Assembly: GCF_003269275.1 (NCBI RefSeq)
Contig: NZ_QLTS01000004.1
Coordinates: forward strand, 1 to 64,000
DNA length: 64,000 nt
Direction of reading: 5' to 3'
Origin: Phascolarctobacterium faecium DSM 14760
GTDB lineage: Bacteria > Bacillota > Negativicutes > Acidaminococcales > Acidaminococcaceae
A program made the translations under genes and the position numbers. The notes beneath the pieces were generated by a model. The model made no database searches and was not told the DNA's origin. It was given only the letters and a program-made list of their open reading frames with translations. This document shows positions 24,689-35,738 of the stretch, piece after piece (the first letter of the stretch is position 1; each line of letters starts with the position of its first letter).

Positions 24689-24919
24689 GCTGACTCTCGC
24701 ATAGAGCAGCACTTGTTTGCCGTATATGCTTCTGACAAATAAAGTACAGGGATACCTGCTTTTGCCAAAGTGCTAAAATAAACTGTTAGAAAAAGATTAT
24801 TGATTAATTAAAGTAATTTTAATTAAAATTTTATCGTTTGCTTGTGTGTTCATTCGAGCCTAGAATAGTGGCTATGTTAGATGCTTCTAACAGCATTATA
24901 TATTTGGAGATGGATCAAG

Positions 24920-27904
24920 ATGAGAACACAAAGCAATTATATGGGAAAAGCAAAGCTGCAGAAAAAAGTTTTAACAACTATTATGACAGGATTTTTATTT
25001 GCCGGTATCAGCAACACAGCGCTGGCAGAGAATGTTTCTGTGCCGGACAGCAAAACCGACGGGCAGACCATTGGCGCAGGCAATACAGCTGCAGGCGATG
25101 GCTGGAGCGTAGAAGTAGGCAGCGACAATAATAAATCAGTCTACAGTGTTGGCGATAAAAACGCCATCAGCCTGCGCGATAATGCTACTATTCATATCAA
25201 AAAAAACGCCGTTGTCACCAACGCAGCCAACAGGAACATCGGCAATTTTGGCACCGGCGCCAATACTATCGAAGTCCGTTCCGGTTCTAAGATCACTGTT
25301 GACGGTACAGTACAAAAGTATGGCCAGCAGAATATGGGCGAAGCGATCAACGTGCATGGCGGCGGCAATACGATCGTTGTCAACGGTTCAGTCATTGCTG
25401 AAAAAAGCGCAGCTATCTGGTTCCAGGACTGGACAGGCACCGGCAACGACAGCAGGAACAGCGTCATCAATAACGGACTGATCCAGCGCACAGACGGCGG
25501 CAACGTCATCGGCACTTCCGGCGGTAACGGCATCGACTTTACCAACAACGGTACCGTCAACGGCAGCCTGTTTTTTGCCAAAGGCGATGATAACCTGACT
25601 TTTATGCCCGGTTCCAATGTTACAGGCAATATTGATGGCGGTGGCGGTAAAAATAAGCTTAACTTAGATGGCAGTAATGATAAAGTAGGGGGAACACTGA
25701 ACGGAGCTATCAAAAATTTTACGAGCCTGACTAAAAAAGGTACCGGCTTGTGGGAGATAACCGGCCCAATGCAGGGCTTTGACACAGTAGACGTACAGCA
25801 GGGCACACTTGGTTTAAGCGGCAACAATGACGGCTTTACAGGCAAGATCACAGTCAGGAAGGACGCCTCTTTAAGCGCCAAAGCTGAAAGCCTGCCGGTC
25901 AATCATCCGGTCAACGGCAATGTGGGGAATATCGACCTGACCAACGGCGGGACGCTGATTTTTGAACAGGATGATAATGGCAGCTATCAGGGGCAGATAA
26001 TCGGCGACGGCTCGGTGATAAAAACAGGCAGCGGCATCGTGGCATTGCGGCCGGATGCCGGCGCCAATACCTACAGCGGTGTCACTACCATTGATGGAGG
26101 CGGGCTGGCGATTTCCTCGCAGGACGCCTTGGGAACTAACAGCGATTTGACCATCAATAACGGCAGCCTGACCGCAGAAGCCGATCTGACTATCGATAAA
26201 CGAATCAATCTTGCCTCGGCAGAAGCTAACAAAACGGCGGTCATTGACACCAACGGACATAACGTGACTGCGGCAGGCGTGCTGAACGGCGTCGTTGACA
26301 GCGGTACTTTTATTAAAATCGGCGCCGGTACGCTGACTGCGGCCAATAACGACAACAGCTTTGCCGGAAACGTCGAAGTTGCCGGTGGTGCGCTGCAGAT
26401 AGACGGCAGCGGTAGCAAAAACTTTACCGGCAAGATCCGCGTACTGCATGAGGCCTTTCTGCAGGGCTCCGGTAAAGTAGCCGGCGACGTAGTCAACGCA
26501 GGCTGGCTGGCGCCGGGCAGCTATAACGATAAGTTCGGCACCTTTACCGTTGGCGGCAACTATACAGGCCAGCCAGGCGGCAAGCTCAGTATCTATTCCG
26601 TTCTGGGCGGCGATGCTTCGCCTACAAGCAAGCTGGTAGTCGAAGGCGATACCGAAGGCTCACCTACCAATATCAGGGTCATCAATCAAAACGGCAGCGG
26701 CGGCTATACCGATAAAGGTATCCTCGTTGTCGACGTCCGGGGCAAGTCTGATCCCAACGCCTTCACGCTGGCCTATGACTACAAGCAGCCCGACGGCACG
26801 GCTGCTGTCGCCGCCGGCAAATACCTCTATCACCTGCAATATAATCAGGAAGACGGCGACTGGTATTTAAAAACACTGCTGAACAAAGACGACACACCCG
26901 TCGTCAACCCTTCCGTACCCCTTTATGAAGCCTATCCGGAGATCATGCTGGGCTATATGAAAGTTAATACCCTGGAAGAACGTGTCGGCAACCGTAAGTG
27001 GCATATCATAGAGGACGGCGAACCGCAGCAGCATTTGCAGTATCAGGAAGGCACCTGGTTCAAGACCGAAGGACTGAGCGGTAAATATAAAGCCGACCGC
27101 AGCACCGCTGCCCCGGACAGCAGCTATGATGTCGATTCGTGGAAAATGCAGATGGGCTACGACAAAATAATCTCCCGTCAGGACGCGGCAACAACAGTTG
27201 TCGGCGGTTTGAACCTGCAAATGGGGCAGGCGCGGGCCAGGATCAAATCAGCAGTCGGTAACGGCAAAATCAAAAGCGACGGCAAAGGCCTGGGCGGTAC
27301 TATGACCTGGTATAAAGACAACGGCGTTTACGTCGATACACAGGCGCAGGCCGTCTGGTTCGACAGCGATATCTCCTCCAGCTCCTCGGCTGCAGCGCAG
27401 CAGATCGAAGGCAACAAAGGCTTTGGTTACGGTCTGAGCGTGGAAACAGGCAAACGGATCGCCATGAAACGCCCGCATTGGTCATGGACACCGCAAATGC
27501 AGCTTGCTTACAGCAATGTTGATTTCGATTCCTTCAGCGACGTCAACGGACTGGCAGTAAAACGCGGCAGCGCCGACAGCCTGCAGGGACGGCTTGGCGC
27601 AGCACTGAACTATGAAAAAAGCTATAAAAACGAAAATGACGAAAATTACCGCAGTGTAAAAGCCTATGGACTGCTCAATGTCTATCATGAATTTCACGAC
27701 GGCACTAACGTTTTGATCGCCGGCGACAACTTTGCCAGCAAAAATGACCCTACCTGGCTGGGACTGGCAGTAGGAGGCACTTATAACTATGGCAGAAATT
27801 CGCAGTACTCTCTGTACGGCGAGCTGGGCATCAGCACCAGCGCCAAAAACTTCGGCGACAGCCATGTACTTCGTGGTGAAGTCGGTTTCAGATATCGTTT
27901 TTAA
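24920..27904 (+). CDS. Autotransporter (type Va) with beta-helix passenger
   Basis: A 994-aa outer-membrane protein. A long basic signal peptide (about residues 1-37, ending near NTALA) is followed by a Gly/Asn/Asp-rich passenger of about 650 residues with repeated short beta segments typical of a right-handed beta-helix (GTGLWEITG, GSGIVALRPDAGANTYSG, GAGTLTAANNDNSFAG are autotransporter-associated repeats). The last 290 residues form the barrel and end in RGEVGFRYRF, the C-terminal aromatic recognised by the BAM machinery. An earlier ATG (24881) adds residues before the signal peptide; GGAG near 24905 favours 24920. Probably a surface adhesin; the ligand is unknown. Confidence 0.9.
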   Translation: MRTQSNYMGKAKLQKKVLTTIMTGFLFAGISNTALAENVSVPDSKTDGQTIGAGNTAAGDGWSVEVGSDNNKSVYSVGDKNAISLRDNATIHIKKNAVVTNAANRNIGNFGTGANTIEVRSGSKITVDGTVQKYGQQNMGEAINVHGGGNTIVVNGSVIAEKSAAIWFQDWTGTGNDSRNSVINNGLIQRTDGGNVIGTSGGNGIDFTNNGTVNGSLFFAKGDDNLTFMPGSNVTGNIDGGGGKNKLNLDGSNDKVGGTLNGAIKNFTSLTKKGTGLWEITGPMQGFDTVDVQQGTLGLSGNNDGFTGKITVRKDASLSAKAESLPVNHPVNGNVGNIDLTNGGTLIFEQDDNGSYQGQIIGDGSVIKTGSGIVALRPDAGANTYSGVTTIDGGGLAISSQDALGTNSDLTINNGSLTAEADLTIDKRINLASAEANKTAVIDTNGHNVTAAGVLNGVVDSGTFIKIGAGTLTAANNDNSFAGNVEVAGGALQIDGSGSKNFTGKIRVLHEAFLQGSGKVAGDVVNAGWLAPGSYNDKFGTFTVGGNYTGQPGGKLSIYSVLGGDASPTSKLVVEGDTEGSPTNIRVINQNGSGGYTDKGILVVDVRGKSDPNAFTLAYDYKQPDGTAAVAAGKYLYHLQYNQEDGDWYLKTLLNKDDTPVVNPSVPLYEAYPEIMLGYMKVNTLEERVGNRKWHIIEDGEPQQHLQYQEGTWFKTEGLSGKYKADRSTAAPDSSYDVDSWKMQMGYDKIISRQDAATTVVGGLNLQMGQARARIKSAVGNGKIKSDGKGLGGTMTWYKDNGVYVDTQAQAVWFDSDISSSSSAAAQQIEGNKGFGYGLSVETGKRIAMKRPHWSWTPQMQLAYSNVDFDSFSDVNGLAVKRGSADSLQGRLGAALNYEKSYKNENDENYRSVKAYGLLNVYHEFHDGTNVLIAGDNFASKNDPTWLGLAVGGTYNYGRNSQYSLYGELGISTSAKNFGDSHVLRGEVGFRYRF

Positions 27905-29132: not shown

Positions 29133-29510
29133 TTATTGACCTGCCGCCAGGGTAAACTTCTTTTCCAGATGCTCGATCAGCTCACGCACCCGGCGCTTGC
29201 TGTTCGCCGGGTCAAACAAATCAGGCTCGTGACAGTCTGCCCGGTGCTCCTGCGTGCGCCGCCGTGCCAGCAGCAGCCTTTTTTGAGCGTCCTGAACAGC
29301 TTCGTCCATATCGTGCAGCCGCGGAAAATAACGCTCACCGGCCAGCTTTTTGACGCAGCCTGTAAACAGGCTCGCTTCTAAAGCTCCATAACGCTCGACC
29401 CACAGCTGCAGCCAAAATTCCTCCTGGGAAGGGCCGGCAAGCGGTGAATGCAGGCCGGCTGCCTTAAACGTCACCAAAGCACGCTGCATAAAAACATAGG
29501 GCCGTTCCAT
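29133..29510 (-). CDS. Uncharacterised protein of the sigma cassette
   Basis: A 125-aa soluble protein that I do not recognise. It is rich in Arg, Glu and Leu, with predicted helices around residues 28-45 (QEEFWLQLWVERYGALEAS) and 65-90 and a basic helical tail (SKRRVRELIEHLEKKF). There is no signal peptide or membrane segment. Its start overlaps the sigma-factor stop by one base (TGATG), so it is translationally coupled and likely acts with the sigma factor, perhaps as a modulator. That role is inference from position only. Confidence 0.6.
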   Translation of the reverse strand: MERPYVFMQRALVTFKAAGLHSPLAGPSQEEFWLQLWVERYGALEASLFTGCVKKLAGERYFPRLHDMDEAVQDAQKRLLLARRRTQEHRADCHEPDLFDPANSKRRVRELIEHLEKKFTLAAGQ

Positions 29511-30112
29511 CAGCGCAGTCTTTCCTGCCTAAGGCCGAAAGCCCGGCGCAGAGTATCCAGCGCTGCCTTTTTAGAGCAGTACACGCTCTGGCTGGTCACA
29601 CCCAGTGTTGCCGCAACCTCGCGCTGGCTTTTGCCCCGCAGGAACACCTCGCTGATCACAAGCCGCTGCATCTGCGGCAGCCGTGCCACCAGCTCCAGCA
29701 CGCAGGCGCTGCGCTCATCCCTGCTGATGCTTTCCTTATAACATTCGCTGGACAGGGCATCTAGGCTCGTGCAGCCCTCCTCGTCCAAAGTTGCCAGCTC
29801 CGCATCGAACAGGTTCTTCTTCTTTTGCACCTGGATATTGAGCTGACGGCGGATCGTATATTTTACGTGTGTGGCAAAAAAGTGGAAATTGTGCTGCTTA
29901 AAGCTTTTGATAGCATCATTGACAGCCATCAAAGCCAGGATCTCCGTATCGTCCTGCTCTAGATAATGTACATAATAACTGTTATATTTAAACGCCCGTA
30001 CCATCGGCGTAAAACCCAGCAAAAGGCTGTTGACCGCCCTGCTGTCGCCGCGCTGTGCCTGCGGCACCAAAACAGCAAAATCAAGCTTCTGTATATTTGA
30101 CTCATGTTCCAT
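29510..30112 (-). CDS. Sigma-70 family RNA polymerase sigma factor
   Basis: A 200-aa alternative sigma factor. Residues about 15-95 resemble region 2 (VPQAQRGDSRAVNSLLLGFTPMVR; EQDDTEILALMAVNDAIKSF; THVKYTIRRQLN), and residues about 140-195 hold a region-4 helix-turn-helix (LPQMQRLVISEVFLRGKSQREVAATLGVTSQSVYCSKKAAL). Region 3 is short, as in ECF-like and SigH/SigI/phage-type factors. It lies 7 bp after a zinc-ribbon gene and is divergent from an amidase/DUF1659/DUF2922/YvrJ operon, which it probably drives from repeated elements in the shared intergenic region. Confidence 0.85.
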   Translation of the reverse strand: MEHESNIQKLDFAVLVPQAQRGDSRAVNSLLLGFTPMVRAFKYNSYYVHYLEQDDTEILALMAVNDAIKSFKQHNFHFFATHVKYTIRRQLNIQVQKKKNLFDAELATLDEEGCTSLDALSSECYKESISRDERSACVLELVARLPQMQRLVISEVFLRGKSQREVAATLGVTSQSVYCSKKAALDTLRRAFGLRQERLR

Positions 30113-30119
30113 CTGTGAT

Positions 30120-30383
30120 CTATCTCCCCTCAGTACCGGCTGCGCCGGTTTTTAAATCTAAAGCAGCCAAAGCAAAATCCTTGGCCGTCAGCCCTTCCAG
30201 ACATTCGCTGCATACTTCGCCGCAGCAGTCCACAGCCAGATACTCGTCACCTTCAAAAATAGGATTGCCGCATAAACTGCAGGTATATACCTCCAGCAGC
30301 TCTGCATTCTCCGGGGCCGCCAGCCAGTCGTTTTCGACAGCGGCCAAACGCTTCTCACTGCTCCTGCAGTCATAATCCATCAT
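30120..30383 (-). CDS. Small zinc-ribbon protein of the sigma cassette
   Basis: An 87-aa acidic protein with four to six cysteines in ribbon spacing: CSLCGNPI (residues about 35-42), then VDCCGEVCSECL (about 52-63). It probably binds one zinc ion. I cannot name the family. It is the first gene of the minus-strand operon, immediately before the sigma factor, so an anti-sigma or partner role is possible but unproven. The ATG is preceded by AAAGG at about 9 bases. Confidence 0.65.
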   Translation of the reverse strand: MMDYDCRSSEKRLAAVENDWLAAPENAELLEVYTCSLCGNPIFEGDEYLAVDCCGEVCSECLEGLTAKDFALAALDLKTGAAGTEGR

Positions 30384-30446
30384 TGCCGCCGCCTTTCACA
30401 AATACCAATAAATTCAAAATGATACGCCTCCTTAGATCGTTAAAAC

Positions 30447-30479
30447 ACCGCCGTCACTTTACTGTACTTTCTTAGTAAG
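30447..30479 (-). promoter_or_regulatory. Composite promoter-like element, copy 1
   Basis: On the minus strand CTTACTAAG (30479-30471) is followed by a spacer containing CAGTAAA and then ACGGCGGT (30454-30447). The same parts in the same order occur on the plus strand at 30700-30729 before the divergent operon. It lies 64 bp before the zinc-ribbon start and is a candidate binding site for the sigma factor or a shared regulator. Confidence 0.5.
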
Positions 30480-30579
30480 CACTACTGATACAAACTTGAT
30501 TAACACTTAAACATAAGAGCCTGTAAAACCTTAGAGAGAGGTAGAAACTTATTAAGAAAAAGAAAATACTAAAAGAAAA

Positions 30580-30606
30580 AGACGGTTTTGTTTTACACTT
30601 ACTAAA
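30580..30606 (-). promoter_or_regulatory. Composite promoter-like element, copy 2
   Basis: On the minus strand TTTAGTAAGTGTAA is followed by AACAAAACCGTC. The first block is identical to the plus-strand copy at 30701-30713 over TTAGTAAGTGTAA; the downstream block is a weaker match. It would start a transcript with a leader of about 190 nt before the zinc-ribbon gene. Confidence 0.45.
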
Positions 30607-30622
30607 TACATAGCCAAAAATC

Positions 30623-30683
30623 AAAAAATCAGGTTCGCGCGAAAAAAATAATTTTTTTTTTTCGGCAGCAAGCCTGATTTTTT
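30623..30683. terminator. Long imperfect hairpin between divergent operons
   Basis: AAAAAATCAGG (30623-30633) pairs with CCTGATTTTTT (30673-30683). Inside it CGAAAAAAA pairs with TTTTTTTCG. Both strands show a T-run after the stem, so it may be a bidirectional terminator or insulator placed between two oppositely directed promoter elements. Confidence 0.6.
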
Positions 30684-30699
30684 CTAAAAAAGATATGTA

Positions 30700-30729
30700 C
30701 TTAGTAAGTGTAAGCAGTAAAACGGCGGT
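30700..30729 (+). promoter_or_regulatory. Composite promoter-like element, copy 3
   Basis: CTTAGTAAG (30700-30708), then GTAAGCAGTAAA, then ACGGCGGT (30722-30729). It is the mirror image of copy 1 and shares TTAGTAAGTGTAA with copy 2. It lies 47 bp before the amidase start. No sigma-A type -10 is seen nearby, which fits use of an alternative sigma factor. Confidence 0.5.
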
Positions 30730-30775
30730 CCCTGTACCTGCTGCTGCTTTCGATCTCAGGAAAGGGGGAACAGCA

Positions 30776-31336
30776 ATGCTGGCAGAACAGCCGCAGATTA
30801 TCTCACTTACGCAGCTTGCCGCTGTGGCAGGCTGCAGCCGCGATCATATCACGCAGCTCTACCTGCACTGGACGGCAGGTCGTTACGGGCAGATCTATGA
30901 CGACTACCACATCAATATCGACGCCGACGGCACAGTCTACCGCACCAGCAGCAGCCTGTCGCAGTACAAAAGCCACACTTGGCGCCGCAACAGCGGCAGT
31001 ATCGCCGTCGCCCTGTGCTGCGGGCTGGGGGCGCAGGCCAACCACGGCTATGATGCCGACCTGGGGCAGTTTGCCCCTACGGCAGTGCAGACCGATAAAA
31101 TGGCGCAGACAGTGGCGCTGCTCGTAACGGCGCTTGGCCTGCAGCTTACTATCGATACCGTAATGACCCACTGTGAAGCAGCGCTGCTGGATGGCTACGG
31201 CCCTTACAGTGGCGATGCCGAAACACGCTGGGACCTGTGGTATATGCGCGATTCACCCGGCGACGGACAGATGAAGCCGGGTGGGGACATACTGCGCGGC
31301 AAAGCTCGCTGGTATTTAGAACACAGTAAAATTTAA
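30776..31336 (+). CDS. N-acetylmuramoyl-L-alanine amidase domain protein
   Basis: A 186-aa protein with an Amidase_2 (PGRP-type, zinc) fold. Visible landmarks are the first zinc His in YLHWTAGRYGQIYDDYH, the strand IDADGTVYRT, the SHTWRRNSGSIAVALCCG block with a second His, and THCEAALLDGYGPYSGD followed by ETRWDLW. There is no signal peptide, so it needs a holin-like exit route or acts after lysis, as phage endolysins do. GGGGGAA lies before the ATG at 30776; a longer frame opens at 30695 but covers the promoter element. First gene of the plus-strand operon. Confidence 0.85.
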   Translation: MLAEQPQIISLTQLAAVAGCSRDHITQLYLHWTAGRYGQIYDDYHINIDADGTVYRTSSSLSQYKSHTWRRNSGSIAVALCCGLGAQANHGYDADLGQFAPTAVQTDKMAQTVALLVTALGLQLTIDTVMTHCEAALLDGYGPYSGDAETRWDLWYMRDSPGDGQMKPGGDILRGKARWYLEHSKI

Positions 31337-31357
31337 AAAACAAAAGGAGTACAGAAC

Positions 31358-31585
31358 ATGAGCACGACTAAAACAGCAACATCCTACAAACTATCTCTGG
31401 GCGTCGAAAACGGCGTCAATGCGCTGGGGGCAGCGCAGGTCAAATCCGTATCTGTCGGCAGCGTCAAGCTGGACGCCGCCGACGACAAATGCCTTGCTGT
31501 GGCCAATGCCATGAACGAGCTGATGAGCCACGAAGTGGTCAACGTCTACGTTACGGAAAAGGCCGAGCTGGCTCAGGCGGAATGA
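31358..31585 (+). CDS. DUF1659 domain protein
   Basis: A 75-aa protein matching the DUF1659 pattern: a polar N terminus, then a central helix in which LAVANAMNELMSHEVVNVYVTEKAEL resembles the family's conserved end. No signal peptide or membrane helix. Function unknown. It lies 21 bp after the amidase gene with AAAAGGAG upstream. In many Firmicutes, as I recall, DUF1659, DUF2922 and YvrJ genes travel together. Confidence 0.75.
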   Translation: MSTTKTATSYKLSLGVENGVNALGAAQVKSVSVGSVKLDAADDKCLAVANAMNELMSHEVVNVYVTEKAELAQAE

Positions 31586-31769
31586 TTTTATAGATCATCC
31601 GCCTGGCAGCAAGTTATTTTTTGATGTTCATATTTAGGCTTTAGATTTTTTTATTAGCCCTTTCTTTAGAAGAAAGCTGCATAGCAAAACTCTTTTAAAG
31701 AAAGTCTAAAATACGAAAAACACAAAAAAATAAAGTAGGCCGAAAACCTACAAAAAAGGAGCAACCACC
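31586..31769. other. Intergenic stretch inside the cassette
   Basis: 184 bp between the DUF1659 and DUF2922 genes with no ORF. It contains a weak hairpin (GGCTTTAG...TTAGCC around 31637-31656) and a short one before the next gene (GTAGG-CCGAAAA-CCTAC, about 31734-31750). There is no copy of the TTAGTAAG element here, so whether DUF2922-YvrJ has its own promoter is unclear. Confidence 0.35.
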
Positions 31770-31982
31770 ATGGAAAAAACCTTAGAACTCATTTTCACCA
31801 AAAGCGACGGAGCTAAAAAAAACTTAAGCATCGCCGACCCTCGCGAAGGACTCACCCTTGCCGACGCCAAAACGGCAGCCGACAAGATCATAGCCGCCAA
31901 CGTACTGACCAGCGGCGGCCTGGAACTGACAGAATTTACTGAAGCCCGCATCAAAACAGTTACTATTGATGTGCTTGCTTAG
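31770..31982 (+). CDS. DUF2922 domain protein
   Basis: A 70-aa protein matching DUF2922: KTLELIFTKSDGAKKNLSIADPREGLT, then a helix LADAKTAADKIIAANVLTS and a C-terminal strand TEARIKTVTIDVLA. No export signal. Function unknown. Its stop codon TAG shares its last base with the GTG start of the next gene (TAGTG), so the two are tightly coupled. Confidence 0.78.
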   Translation: MEKTLELIFTKSDGAKKNLSIADPREGLTLADAKTAADKIIAANVLTSGGLELTEFTEARIKTVTIDVLA

Positions 31983-32143
31983 TGGAAGCCCAGAAATTAT
32001 TTACAGCAATAGGTAATTTTGGCTTCCCGATAGTATTGAGCTGGTACCTGCTGCTGCGTATGGAGCAGCGGCTGGACAAGCTGGGCGACTGCCTGCACGA
32101 GCTGAGCAGCGCCATTGTCGAGGAACAGAAAAAAACTGAATAA
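31982..32143 (+). CDS. YvrJ family, holin-like small membrane protein
   Basis: A 53-aa protein starting at GTG 31982. An N-terminal membrane helix (AIGNFGFPIVLSWYLLLRME, residues about 10-28) is followed by a charged amphipathic helix (QRLDKLGDCLHELSSAIVEEQKKTE). This matches the YvrJ family, whose layout resembles BhlA/UviB-type phage and bacteriocin holins. Coupled by a 1-bp overlap to DUF2922. A role in letting the amidase or another cargo cross the inner membrane is inference. Confidence 0.75.
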   Translation: MEAQKLFTAIGNFGFPIVLSWYLLLRMEQRLDKLGDCLHELSSAIVEEQKKTE

Positions 32144-32250: not shown

Positions 32251-32622
32251 GTTTTGTATTATACACCTAAAAATTATCAGTTGCAAGACCATTGAACAAA
32301 TTTTTCAAAAAAACGAACAAAAATGTCTTGCGGGGGGACAAACATGGTAATATAGTAAATGGTTAAAAATATTAACTGTAATAGGAAAATTTGAATCAAA
32401 AGATAATAGTTTTATTTTATTAGCGTTACTGCTAAGCTTGGCAGTTACTTGAGAATTAATAAAGATGAAAGTAGCTCTGCTGCAGCAAATTATCAGGTCA
32501 GCAAATTTTACTGCAGGTTATGAAGCTAACAGGAGCGGTAGCTAATAGGCAATCACAATTACAACACTATGGAAATAGGTTGTCTAATGAAGTGATAAAG
32601 CAAAAAGAAAGGTGTGAAAAAG
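32251..32622. other. Gene-free stretch before the XRE regulator
   Basis: 372 bp without a convincing ORF. It includes an imperfect inverted repeat (ACTGCTAAGCTTGGCAGT, about 32428-32445) and a possible promoter (TTGCGG near 32329 with TATAGT about 16 bp later). Base composition is A/T-richer than the cassette to the left, which fits a boundary between two units. Confidence 0.3.
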
Positions 32623-32895
32623 ATGGAAGGAATGGATCCTTTAAGGATTGGGGAGACTATCAAGATCAAAAGGATACAAAAAAGGATTACTCAAACTAAT
32701 TTTGCCAAGAAGCTTAAGATATCTCAAACGCATCTGAGCAATGCTGAAAACGGCAGAGTGATGCTGAGTTTGAAAGCACTGTTAAAGCTGAGAGATATTT
32801 TTGAATGTACTTTGGATGAATTGGTTGATCCTGACAGATTTGAGAAAAAGAAGGAACGGGTAAAAAGATACAAACTCGTACGCTGCAGCGAGTAG
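32623..32895 (+). CDS. XRE-family DNA-binding regulator
   Basis: A 90-aa helix-turn-helix protein. Residues about 8-62 form a Cro/C1-type HTH (IGETIKIKRIQKRITQTNFAKKLKISQTHLSNAENGR, then LLKLRDIFECTLDELVD). The tail is basic. The frame opens at a GTG (32614); AAAGG spaced 9 bases before ATG 32623 favours the latter. It heads the unit containing a Cys-rich protein and autotransporter 2, and likely controls it. Confidence 0.85.
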   Translation: MEGMDPLRIGETIKIKRIQKRITQTNFAKKLKISQTHLSNAENGRVMLSLKALLKLRDIFECTLDELVDPDRFEKKKERVKRYKLVRCSE

Positions 32896-32914: not shown

Positions 32915-33256
32915 ATGCATATCGAAAGCTGGGAGGAAGCGATACACAAAGATAACAGGGCAGGATTAGGAGGGCTGACAGTCAAGTGTCCGATCTGCGG
33001 CCGTGAATTTGGCTGCAATAAAACATATCATGTCTATACAGCTTTGGTAGGAAGAAAGCGGCAATATTACTGCAGCTATTCCTGTTATAAACAAAGGTCT
33101 AATCCAAAGGAAAAAGATGAATGGGAGGAAATGTATCATGGAAAAGATGGATTTAAGCAAAAAGGTATTGGCGTCTTTGCTGACAATGTCGTGTGTATAT
33201 CTGGGGGGAACATCCGTGCTCCCAACAGCTGGCGCGGCAGAGAATGCGGCGGATAA
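32915..33256 (+). CDS. Small Cys-rich (zinc-binding-like) protein overlapping autotransporter 2
   Basis: An ORF of 113 aa from ATG 32915 (or 116 aa from ATG 32906). Residues about 24-60 contain CPICGREFGCN and YYCSYSCYK, a CxxC...CxxxC arrangement that may bind zinc and resembles phage-type zinc fingers for recognising basic DNA-binding partners. The last 40 residues overlap the autotransporter gene in another frame and look like out-of-frame sequence, so the functional part is probably the first 70-75 residues. Function unknown. The autotransporter ribosome-binding site lies inside this ORF. Confidence 0.55.
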   Translation: MHIESWEEAIHKDNRAGLGGLTVKCPICGREFGCNKTYHVYTALVGRKRQYYCSYSCYKQRSNPKEKDEWEEMYHGKDGFKQKGIGVFADNVVCISGGNIRAPNSWRGRECGG

Positions 33257-35738
33257 CAACGTTGGGCAGCTGATCACTAATGGTGGTAGCCTGACTGGCG
33301 GTGATGTTTTTAATTTCACGTCTGAGAGCACTGCAAATTATACAGCATTGCGATTTTATGGAGAGAATCTTGATATTCCTATGACTGGCAGCGGCGTTTA
33401 TACGATCAACGGTAATGGTGGGATAATCAGTCAGGCTTATGGCATGGTTTTCGGCAGCAGTGAAGATGTTGAGACCGGAGGCTGGGGTGGACCATCCAAA
33501 AGTTTTGTAAGAGCAACGGGTATTATAAACGGTGACTGGCAGCTGAATCTCAAGGCTGATGCAGGAGAATCCAGAGGTATTATTATTGATGGAGGAACTA
33601 AATATATAAATCCCGGGTCTTTTGATTCTATTAACGATGCTAGTGATATAATTTTCAATGGCAAGGTGAATATTGATATTGAAGGTCAGGGTATAAATTC
33701 TATTTACTTAAATGGCGGAGCTAAAGGCACTTTTAAGGACGATGTGAATATAAAAGGTACTAGTAATGGCAACAATGCGCTGTATGGTATCTATCTTAAT
33801 AACTATACAGATAACATGGGAAGTGTTTCTTTTGAGAAAGATTTGAAGTTGCAACTCTATCATAACAGTACTCAACAGGGCAGTAATCTTGGTTACGGCA
33901 TCAATGTGTTCGGCAAACATAATACGCTTACAGTCCAAGGCAAAACTACCATTGATATTGGTTCAGCAGGACAAATAAGTTATGCCATTCAGGTAAACGG
34001 CCAGAATTCGTCTGCTATCTTTAGTGATACTGAGATTACAATGACGGGAGGTTCTGTACAGCGCGGGGTAAATGCTGCTTATGGCAGTATTGATTTTACA
34101 GGCGATACCAAGATTACCTTGAACAATCATTCTGCGAGTAGTGGAACAATGAAAGCTACGGCAGTAAATGCACAGGACAGCGGTGTCGTAAATATTAATA
34201 GTGCTAAAGATAAAACAGTACAGGTCAAGGGACATTTTGTTTCAACATCTAAGGGTGTTATTAATGCTGTTTTTAATAATGCGAATTCCTGGTGGGAAGG
34301 CGATGCCCAGCTGAATGCCAGTGGCAATGCGATCAATTTAGAGTTGGCTAATGGTGCAGTTTGGTATCCCGGCTGCGATAGTACTATTTATAACAAAGGT
34401 ATGAATTTGAATCTGCATGACGGTGGCATTGTTGATATGACGAAGACTGCTGATCAATATGCTGATTTAAATATTGGCAGTGTTAATGGTACTGGTGGTT
34501 TGTTCAGGTTGGAAACAGATGTTGTGAATATGCAAAGTGACAAGGTAAATATTCTTGCCAGTACAGATGCAGGCACGCACAGCATCGATATTATTGATGT
34601 TAACGAAGTGACGATGGATCAGATTGCTGCTGATGCAGGTAAAGGGCTTTTGCTGGCAACGGCTCCGGATGCGATTAAATTTACGGCTAACGAACGTGAA
34701 CAATCGTTATTTTATGTGAAGTATAACTTAAAAGACGAAGTGCTTGGCACCGGGATGACAGAATGGAAACTGGATGGTTTTGAAATAGTGCCAGTAGAAC
34801 CGGATAATCCGGATAACCCTGACATTAAACCTACTACCAGCGTGGATACCATACTTTCTGCTAATGCGCTGAACTACCACACCTGGCGTACGGAAAATGA
34901 CAAGCTGCTCCAACGCATGGGCGAGCTGAGACATAATGGCGAGGAAGAACAGGGAGCCTGGTTTCGCGTGAAGGGCAGCAAGATCAGCCGTGATAGTAAG
35001 TTTGGTTTTGAGAACAAATACACTGCTTATGAGCTGGGCTACGATCAGGTAACTAAACGTACTGCCGACAAAACACGTTATCAGGGCGTTGGTTTGAGCT
35101 ATACTGACGGCAGCAGCATCTACAGCCGTGGCAGCGGTGACAACAGCAGCAAGTCGATTGGTTTCTACAGCACTGATATCGGTAGCAAGGGTCATTATCT
35201 GGATTTAGTATTTAAAATCAGCAATATGGATAATGATTTTACAGTTTATGATACCAACCGCAACAAGATCACTGGTGATTTTAATAATACCGGCGTATCG
35301 CTGAGTGCCGAATACGGACGTAAAAATAATTTGCAAAATGGCTGGTATATCGAGCCGCAGGTACAGTTTACATTAGGTTATCTGGGTGGGGATAACTACG
35401 TTGCCAGTAATGGTATCGAAGTAGAACAAAGCGGTATTAAAAGTGCTGTCGGCCGTATCGGGTTTAACATTGGTAAAGAAGTCGGCGAAAAAGGCATAGT
35501 TTACGTCAAGGCCAACCTGCTGCACGAATTTGGCGGTGGTTACGATGTAACTATGACTGACAGTACAGGCCGGGTGAAAGTCAGCGACAGCTTTGACGAT
35601 ACCTGGTTTGAATACGGCATCGGTGCGGCGTTAACGACCGGCAGTAACAGTCATATTTATTTTGATGTAGAACGCAGTGCTGGCAGCGACTTTACTAAAG
35701 ACTGGCAATGGAATGTCGGAGTAAGGTGGAATTTCTAA
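33138..35738 (+). CDS. Autotransporter 2 with C-terminal beta-barrel
   Basis: An 866-aa outer-membrane protein. A signal peptide (MEKMDLSKKVLASLLTMSCV, cleavage near residues 30-37, GAAEN) precedes an Asn/Gly/Ser-rich passenger of about 550 residues with repeated beta segments. After a Pro/Asp linker (VEPDNPDNPDIKP) the autotransporter barrel runs from about residue 590 and ends WNVGVRWNF, with the terminal Phe needed for BAM recognition. GGGAGGA 9 bases before ATG 33138 fixes the start. It lies within a likely operon with a regulator upstream and a lipoprotein 16 bp downstream. Confidence 0.9.
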   Translation: MEKMDLSKKVLASLLTMSCVYLGGTSVLPTAGAAENAADNNVGQLITNGGSLTGGDVFNFTSESTANYTALRFYGENLDIPMTGSGVYTINGNGGIISQAYGMVFGSSEDVETGGWGGPSKSFVRATGIINGDWQLNLKADAGESRGIIIDGGTKYINPGSFDSINDASDIIFNGKVNIDIEGQGINSIYLNGGAKGTFKDDVNIKGTSNGNNALYGIYLNNYTDNMGSVSFEKDLKLQLYHNSTQQGSNLGYGINVFGKHNTLTVQGKTTIDIGSAGQISYAIQVNGQNSSAIFSDTEITMTGGSVQRGVNAAYGSIDFTGDTKITLNNHSASSGTMKATAVNAQDSGVVNINSAKDKTVQVKGHFVSTSKGVINAVFNNANSWWEGDAQLNASGNAINLELANGAVWYPGCDSTIYNKGMNLNLHDGGIVDMTKTADQYADLNIGSVNGTGGLFRLETDVVNMQSDKVNILASTDAGTHSIDIIDVNEVTMDQIAADAGKGLLLATAPDAIKFTANEREQSLFYVKYNLKDEVLGTGMTEWKLDGFEIVPVEPDNPDNPDIKPTTSVDTILSANALNYHTWRTENDKLLQRMGELRHNGEEEQGAWFRVKGSKISRDSKFGFENKYTAYELGYDQVTKRTADKTRYQGVGLSYTDGSSIYSRGSGDNSSKSIGFYSTDIGSKGHYLDLVFKISNMDNDFTVYDTNRNKITGDFNNTGVSLSAEYGRKNNLQNGWYIEPQVQFTLGYLGGDNYVASNGIEVEQSGIKSAVGRIGFNIGKEVGEKGIVYVKANLLHEFGGGYDVTMTDSTGRVKVSDSFDDTWFEYGIGAALTTGSNSHIYFDVERSAGSDFTKDWQWNVGVRWNF

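What the first reader, a model, noticed from the sequence alone, without database searches (positions are those of the whole stretch)
29133..32143. Divergent sigma factor / zinc-ribbon / amidase / DUF1659 / DUF2922 / YvrJ cassette
Seven genes form two divergent operons. Left: zinc-ribbon protein, sigma factor, coupled 125-aa unknown. Right: signal-less amidase, DUF1659, DUF2922 and a 53-aa holin-like YvrJ peptide. A peptidoglycan amidase without signal peptide plus a small one-helix membrane protein under a dedicated sigma factor resembles the logic of TcdR/TcdE and UviA/UviB, where a sigma factor and holin-like protein drive toxin or bacteriocin release. No phage structural genes are near. 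It could be a regulated lysis or protein-release module, with DUF1659 and DUF2922 as cargo or partners. The individual families are known; the function of the combination is, to my knowledge, not described.
Basis: partly seen in the sequence, partly recalled or inferred. Interest (0 to 1): 0.85.

Follow-up and report, generated by a model that had tools for sequence, protein, structure and literature searches.

The report
Sigma-linked holin-like/endolysin cassette with DUF1659-DUF2922
A gut bacterium carries a small gene cassette in which a dedicated transcription factor faces a phage-type cell-wall-cutting enzyme, a tiny holin-like membrane protein and two small proteins of unknown function; this three-small-gene core recurs across a large bacterial phylum and looks like a phage lysis kit that cells have taken over, but it appears not to have been described.

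Summary
DUF1659-DUF2922-YvrJ is a real unit: same order and strand in 50 of 60 loci sampled across the phylum. It keeps company with peptidoglycan hydrolases of several unrelated families and with a regulator: a sigma factor (15 of 21 related contigs) or, elsewhere, a ComK-like protein. In viral contigs YvrJ, without the two DUFs, sits in the lysis region beside endolysins. The window's amidase is a phage-endolysin relative with a paralogue in a prophage of the same genome. The divergent intergenic region holds two outward-facing copies of a 20-bp motif found nowhere else in the genome; a second cassette has its own, different pair. Best reading: a domesticated, regulator-controlled lysis or release module of the UviA/UviB/endolysin kind, with DUF1659/DUF2922 in the place of toxin or bacteriocin. 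Sigma control, membrane permeabilisation and release are inferred, not shown. The role of the acidic, probably ββαβ DUF pair is open. New variant of a known kind; the conserved core seems undescribed in the open papers searched.

The parts
29133..29510 (-). 125-aa protein of unknown function, third gene of the sigma operon, overlaps the sigma stop by 1 nt
   Evidence: no Pfam/NCBIfam/PHROG hit; 22% identical positional counterpart in cassette C8
29510..30112 (-). sigma-70 family factor, 200 aa, regions 2 and 4
   Evidence: Sigma70_r4 8e-7; TIGR02937 1.3e-11, SigI-like N half 1.2e-9; homologues beside the trio in 15 of 21 related loci
30120..30383 (-). 87-aa zinc-ribbon-like protein, first gene of the sigma operon
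   Evidence: no family over cut-off; 40% identical counterpart in cassette C8
30593..30612 (-). left copy of private 20-bp motif TATGTAtTTAGTAAGTGTAA, facing the sigma operon
   Evidence: 19 of 20 identical to the right copy; 0 of 100 dinucleotide shuffles reach the score; no other copy within 2 mismatches in the genome
30694..30713 (+). right copy of the motif, TATGTAcTTAGTAAGTGTAA, facing the amidase operon, about 63 bp upstream of the amidase start
30776..31336 (+). phage-endolysin-type N-acetylmuramoyl-L-alanine amidase, 186 aa, no signal peptide seen
   Evidence: Amidase_2 8.6e-6; PHROG endolysin 2.4e-33; HWTAG, YH, THxE, RWDL conserved in paralogues and relatives
31358..31585 (+). DUF1659 protein, 75 aa
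   Evidence: PF07872 1.8e-15; AF2 model beta-beta-alpha-beta, pLDDT 69
31770..31982 (+). DUF2922 protein, 70 aa
   Evidence: PF11148 4.2e-20; AF2 model beta-beta-alpha-beta, pLDDT 92.8
31982..32143 (+). YvrJ, 53 aa, one short hydrophobic stretch then an amphipathic-looking tail; GTG start overlaps the DUF2922 stop
   Evidence: PF12841 1.4e-13; PHROG holin 0.0027; homologues lie beside endolysins in viral contigs

Best explanation
A chromosomal, regulator-controlled lysis or protein-release module built from phage lysis parts. The sigma factor would switch on its own operon and the amidase operon from two outward-facing copies of a cassette-private motif. The endolysin-type amidase has no signal peptide and would accumulate in the cytoplasm until YvrJ, a single short helix plus amphipathic tail, permeabilises the membrane or passes it through, as proposed for BhlA/TpeE holins; the amidase then cuts the wall, either lysing a subpopulation or opening it locally. 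DUF1659 and DUF2922, two acidic proteins of one predicted topology, would be the released pair or partners that time YvrJ. Shown here: gene content, conservation of the trio, its company with hydrolases and regulators, YvrJ's place in phage lysis regions, the endolysin relationship, the motif pair. Inferred: sigma-motif recognition, holin activity, lysis or release, role of the DUFs.
For: DUF1659-DUF2922-YvrJ in fixed order and strand in 50 of 60 loci from about 50 families. Genes just downstream: Amidase_2 14, Amidase_3 3, M15 peptidase 3 of 72, against no such family with 2 or more members among 72 distant genes of the same loci; Fisher p about 5e-6 allowing one in the control. Sigma factor beside the trio in 15 of 21 related contigs, and 4 of the other 6 are cut by contig ends; in 32 loci of the window's own family amidase in 18, sigma in 15, both in 14. 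Viral contigs: 32 loci with YvrJ, none with the DUFs; neighbours in 27 distinct loci include Amidase_2 5, Amidase_3 2, GH108 2, lysozyme 1, M15 1, M23 1. A prophage of the same genome has a 51% identical lysin behind tail-fibre genes and two membrane proteins. Private motif pairs in two cassettes of the genome. Plasmid copies: ComK-DUF1659-DUF2922-YvrJ-M15 peptidase, and ComK-like-DUF1659-DUF2922-YvrJ-amidase. Literature precedents.
Against: No functional data. YvrJ matches no Pfam holin family convincingly; the PHROG holin match is weak (0.0027). A repeated motif occurs in 3 of about 10 divergent cassettes only, and a contiguous 20-bp block with a palindromic core (ACTTAGTAAGT) looks as much like an operator as like a sigma promoter. 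About one in six YvrJ loci lack the DUFs, and many trio loci show no hydrolase or regulator within 2.5 kb. The host is a diderm, so outer-membrane passage is unexplained.
Confidence: 0.55

Rival explanations
1. Competence-linked wall remodelling or DNA release: the trio and its hydrolase belong to a ComK/sigma-controlled competence programme and help DNA cross or leave the wall.
For: ComK-like protein within 2.5 kb in 16 loci and further out in 3 (best Pfam ComK match 2.6e-5); annotated ComK directly before the trio on pHTA426; ComK-like genes near sigma-trio loci in Negativicutes and Peptoniphilaceae.
Against: No com genes noticed in the cassettes; ComK-like is absent from most loci and from the window; YvrJ in phages sits in lysis regions, not with DNA-uptake genes; the DUFs are acidic, median pI 5.1 and 4.6, so DNA binding is unlikely.
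Confidence: 0.2
2. An envelope-stress or wall-turnover device without lysis: YvrJ anchors DUF1659/DUF2922 and the amidase at the inner membrane, under a stress sigma factor, as SigO controls acid-stress genes in B. subtilis.
For: SigO-RsoA transcribes yvrJ together with the oxalate decarboxylase operon (PMC8103513); 8 of the downstream hydrolases carry a SPOR domain.
Against: Free exchange of hydrolase families and the phage setting of YvrJ fit a lysin-delivery role better.
Confidence: 0.15
3. Remnant of a prophage lysis region kept by drift.
For: Amidase and YvrJ relatives are phage lysis genes.
Against: No phage structural genes nearby; DUF1659/DUF2922 absent from all 32 viral YvrJ loci, and DUF2922 from 50,697 phage records by tblastn; conserved order across the phylum and conserved catalytic residues.
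Confidence: 0.05

Closest known systems
UviA-UviB-endolysin module of Bcn5 bacteriocins (C. perfringens, C. algidicarnis)
   Same: dedicated sigma factor, one-helix holin-like protein, N-acetylmuramoyl-L-alanine amidase, divergent arrangement (PMC9527704)
   Different: no bacteriocin gene; DUF1659-DUF2922 in its place; YvrJ is not shown to be a BhlA-family member; the sigma factor was not tested for membership of the UviA group
TcdR-TcdE(-TcdL) of C. difficile
   Same: sigma factor plus phage-derived holin used for release of signal-less proteins (PMC6200909)
   Different: TcdE has several membrane helices, its endolysin is a remnant and its cargo a large toxin; none of that here
B. subtilis SigO-RsoA regulon (oxdC-yvrL, yvrJ, sigO-rsoA)
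   Same: a dedicated sigma system transcribing yvrJ (PMC8103513)
   Different: two-subunit sigma; no DUF2922 in the B. subtilis control genome; no amidase named in that regulon
Phage lysis cassette
   Same: YvrJ and endolysin side by side, tail-fibre genes upstream in phages
   Different: host-encoded, with its own regulator and the DUF pair

Membership tests
UviA/UviB-type sigma-holin-endolysin module | dedicated sigma-70 family factor next to the holin-like gene | tested here: met
UviA/UviB-type sigma-holin-endolysin module | endolysin-type amidase without signal peptide | tested here: met
   (hydropathy only, no signal-peptide predictor)
UviA/UviB-type sigma-holin-endolysin module | BhlA-family single-helix holin | tested here: inconclusive
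   topology similar; no Pfam BhlA match among 33 YvrJ proteins; PHROG holin 0.0027
UviA/UviB-type sigma-holin-endolysin module | bacteriocin or toxin cargo gene | tested here: not met
   only DUF1659 and DUF2922 in the operon
UviA/UviB-type sigma-holin-endolysin module | sigma-dependent transcription | not testable with these tools
   motif pair only
YvrJ family PF12841 | match over curated cut-off | tested here: met
   50.6 against 29.5 bits
Phage holin | place beside endolysin in phage genomes | tested here: met
   for YvrJ homologues:
Phage holin | membrane permeabilisation that releases endolysin | not testable with these tools
   needs an experiment
Prophage | structural or integration genes nearby | tested here: not met
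   ORF lists of the window read by eye
phi29 p6-like fold for DUF1659/DUF2922 | same fold as p6 | tested here: inconclusive
   p6 ranks first for DUF1659 (Z 5.3, rmsd 2.9 over 59) and second for DUF2922 (Z 4.8, rmsd 2.8 over 52); such Z values may mean only a common arrangement
ComK family (regulator beside other trios) | Pfam ComK match over cut-off | tested here: inconclusive
   one tested protein 18.9 against 22.3 bits; best in a set 2.6e-5; the pHTA426 copy is annotated as ComK

The most novel reading that the evidence does not exclude
DUF1659-DUF2922-YvrJ is the core of a widespread, undescribed Bacillota system in which a domesticated phage holin-endolysin pair, switched by private sigma factors or ComK-like proteins, releases or is gated by a conserved two-protein complex; the regulator and hydrolase are exchangeable, the core is not, and each cassette has its own orthogonal regulator-site pair.
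Probability: 0.4. Interest if true: 0.82.

Novelty: new variant of a known kind. Interest (0 to 1): 0.63.

Why it matters
YvrJ occurs in 43% of sampled genomes of the phylum (172 of 398), usually with the two DUFs, yet the open literature searched holds nothing on their joint function. If this is a release or programmed-lysis module, it would add a common host-encoded, toxin-free counterpart to UviA/UviB and TcdR/TcdE and give three families of unknown function a testable role at once.

Tried and rejected
PDB relatives of DUF2922 and DUF1659 by sequence: none useful. Fold search: no match at E <= 0.001; the phi29 p6-like lead is weak, and acidic pI speaks against DNA binding. Homology of DUF1659 with DUF2922: collinear but weak (hhalign probability 17, P 0.0015); same predicted topology. 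A phylum-wide YvrJ alignment was too diverse for the genome-contig scan, so a narrower one was used. Motif pair in other divergent cassettes: a repeat was found only in L161/L202, as two direct 22-bp near-palindromes; not in L160, L163, L164, L165, L167, L204, L217, L223, L228. Invertible-promoter reading of the inverted repeat: not excluded, but no invertase was noticed and L161 has direct copies. Close orthologues of the window's sigma factor at E <= 1e-20: none in 60 relatives, so conservation of motif with sigma could not be tested. Autotransporter link: 3 of 4 trio copies in this genome lie within 6 kb of one (19 in the genome), but this is not conserved in relatives.
Full report
What is there. 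The window lies in a 2.3-Mb Negativicutes genome whose nearest named relatives in the scan are Acidaminococcaceae. Left operon, minus strand: 87-aa zinc-ribbon-like protein, sigma factor, 125-aa protein. Right operon, plus strand: amidase, DUF1659, DUF2922, YvrJ. The last two overlap by one base, as do sigma and the 125-aa gene. The amidase starts best at 30776. Its catalytic-site motifs (HWTAG, YH, THxE, RWDL) are kept in paralogues and relatives.

Copies in the same genome. There are four YvrJ and four DUF2922 loci, six matches to the amidase and five to the sigma factor. Contig C8 repeats the whole left operon facing an amidase: zinc-ribbon (40% identical), sigma (27%), 136-aa protein (22%). 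Several copies end at contig breaks, as expected of repeats: C3 and C14 share 862 bases at 97%. A truncated amidase lies at the end of C6. One amidase paralogue (C9) sits behind phage tail-fibre genes and two membrane proteins in what looks like a prophage, and both it and the window's amidase match the same PHROG endolysin (1.1e-35 and 2.4e-33).

Conservation. YvrJ is in 172 of 398 genomes sampled across the phylum, 118 of 271 genera. I read 60 of these loci at about 6 kb on each side: DUF1659-DUF2922-YvrJ in that order and strand in 50; at least one of the other ten is cut off by a contig end. Genes following the trio are enriched in peptidoglycan hydrolases of different families (against the control). 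A ComK-like protein lies within 2.5 kb in 16 loci and further out in 3; sigma factors are the commonest family upstream (6 of 65 genes). In contigs related to the window's YvrJ the sigma factor is beside the trio in 15 of 21, in Acidaminococcaceae, Sporomusa and Peptoniphilaceae-type genomes. In 32 loci of the window's own family, 31 have DUF2922 next to YvrJ, 18 the amidase, 15 the sigma, 14 both; several are cut by contig ends; these overlap in part with the 21. On plasmids of Geobacillus and Peribacillus the order is ComK-like regulator, DUF1659, DUF2922, YvrJ, hydrolase, integrase.

YvrJ in viruses. Of 2.9 million viral contigs, 32 loci carry YvrJ and none carries DUF1659 or DUF2922 nearby. 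Many show tail genes, YvrJ, a membrane protein of about 110 residues and an endolysin; endolysin families head the PHROG list of neighbours (Pfam). One viral amidase (L132) and one M15 peptidase (L134) resemble by eye those beside chromosomal trios. This is the strongest evidence that YvrJ belongs to lysis.

Regulation. Between the operons, TATGTAyTTAGTAAGTGTAA occurs twice, facing outward, at 30593-30612 and 30694-30713; no shuffle of 100 reaches the score and the genome has no other copy within two mismatches. The core CTTAGTAAG appears again at 30471. Cassette C8 has a different 19-bp block, also as an outward pair and also found nowhere else. A related cassette, L161, has two direct 22-bp copies of yet another motif. 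Most other divergent cassettes show none. I read these as sites of a cassette-private regulator, most simply the sigma factor; an operator for another protein or an invertible element is not excluded. The sigma factor is very divergent: no match at 1e-20 in 60 relatives.

The two DUFs. AlphaFold2 gives DUF2922 as a confident beta-beta-alpha-beta fold (pLDDT 92.8) and DUF1659 with the same topology at low confidence (69). Profile comparison hints at common origin. Weak structural matches include phage phi29 p6 for both, below the level that carries meaning; both families are acidic, so a DNA-binding role is unlikely.

Comparison. UviA-UviB-endolysin modules share the logic and even the divergent layout (PMC9527704), TcdR-TcdE the logic with a remnant endolysin (PMC6200909), and SigO-RsoA in B. 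subtilis already ties a dedicated sigma system to yvrJ (PMC8103513). The present cassette differs by the absence of any toxin or bacteriocin gene and by the conserved DUF pair. Searches of 5.39 million open papers found nothing on the combination; subscription literature was not searched.

Verdict. Observation confirmed; interpretation partly supported; a new variant of a known kind with a conserved core that seems undescribed. What it works like (a sigma-controlled holin-endolysin module) is better supported than membership of the UviA/UviB family, for which the cargo is missing and the holin family is unproven.

Noticed in passing
24881-27904 and 33117-35738; C3 and C14 copies (L006, L007): Autotransporter genes flank the cassette and lie beside two other trio copies; sigma paralogues on C1 and C13 also lie next to such genes. 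19 in the genome; the link is not conserved in relatives.
   Followed up: partly
G412 contigs C3, C10, C13, C21: Another genome of the family has four YvrJ copies with identical scores, each within about 1.2 kb of a contig end as far as the contig lengths are known, so the cassette seems to be a repeat there too.
   Followed up: no
L022:7305-11551: An amidase paralogue (C1:582322) lies in a cluster with a putative lipase-like protein (GFSGGGFRAT motif, by eye) and other small proteins; no trio.
   Followed up: no
32614-32895: XRE-type HTH gene (HTH_3 1.1e-11) between the cassette and the right autotransporter; a related HTH lies downstream of the C14 copy.
   Followed up: no
L020:170-304: Amidase copy with a large internal deletion at the end of contig C6, probably a decayed cassette.
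   Followed up: partly
30623-30683: A/T-rich imperfect hairpin between the two motif copies (29-nt arms, 72% complementary).
   Followed up: no
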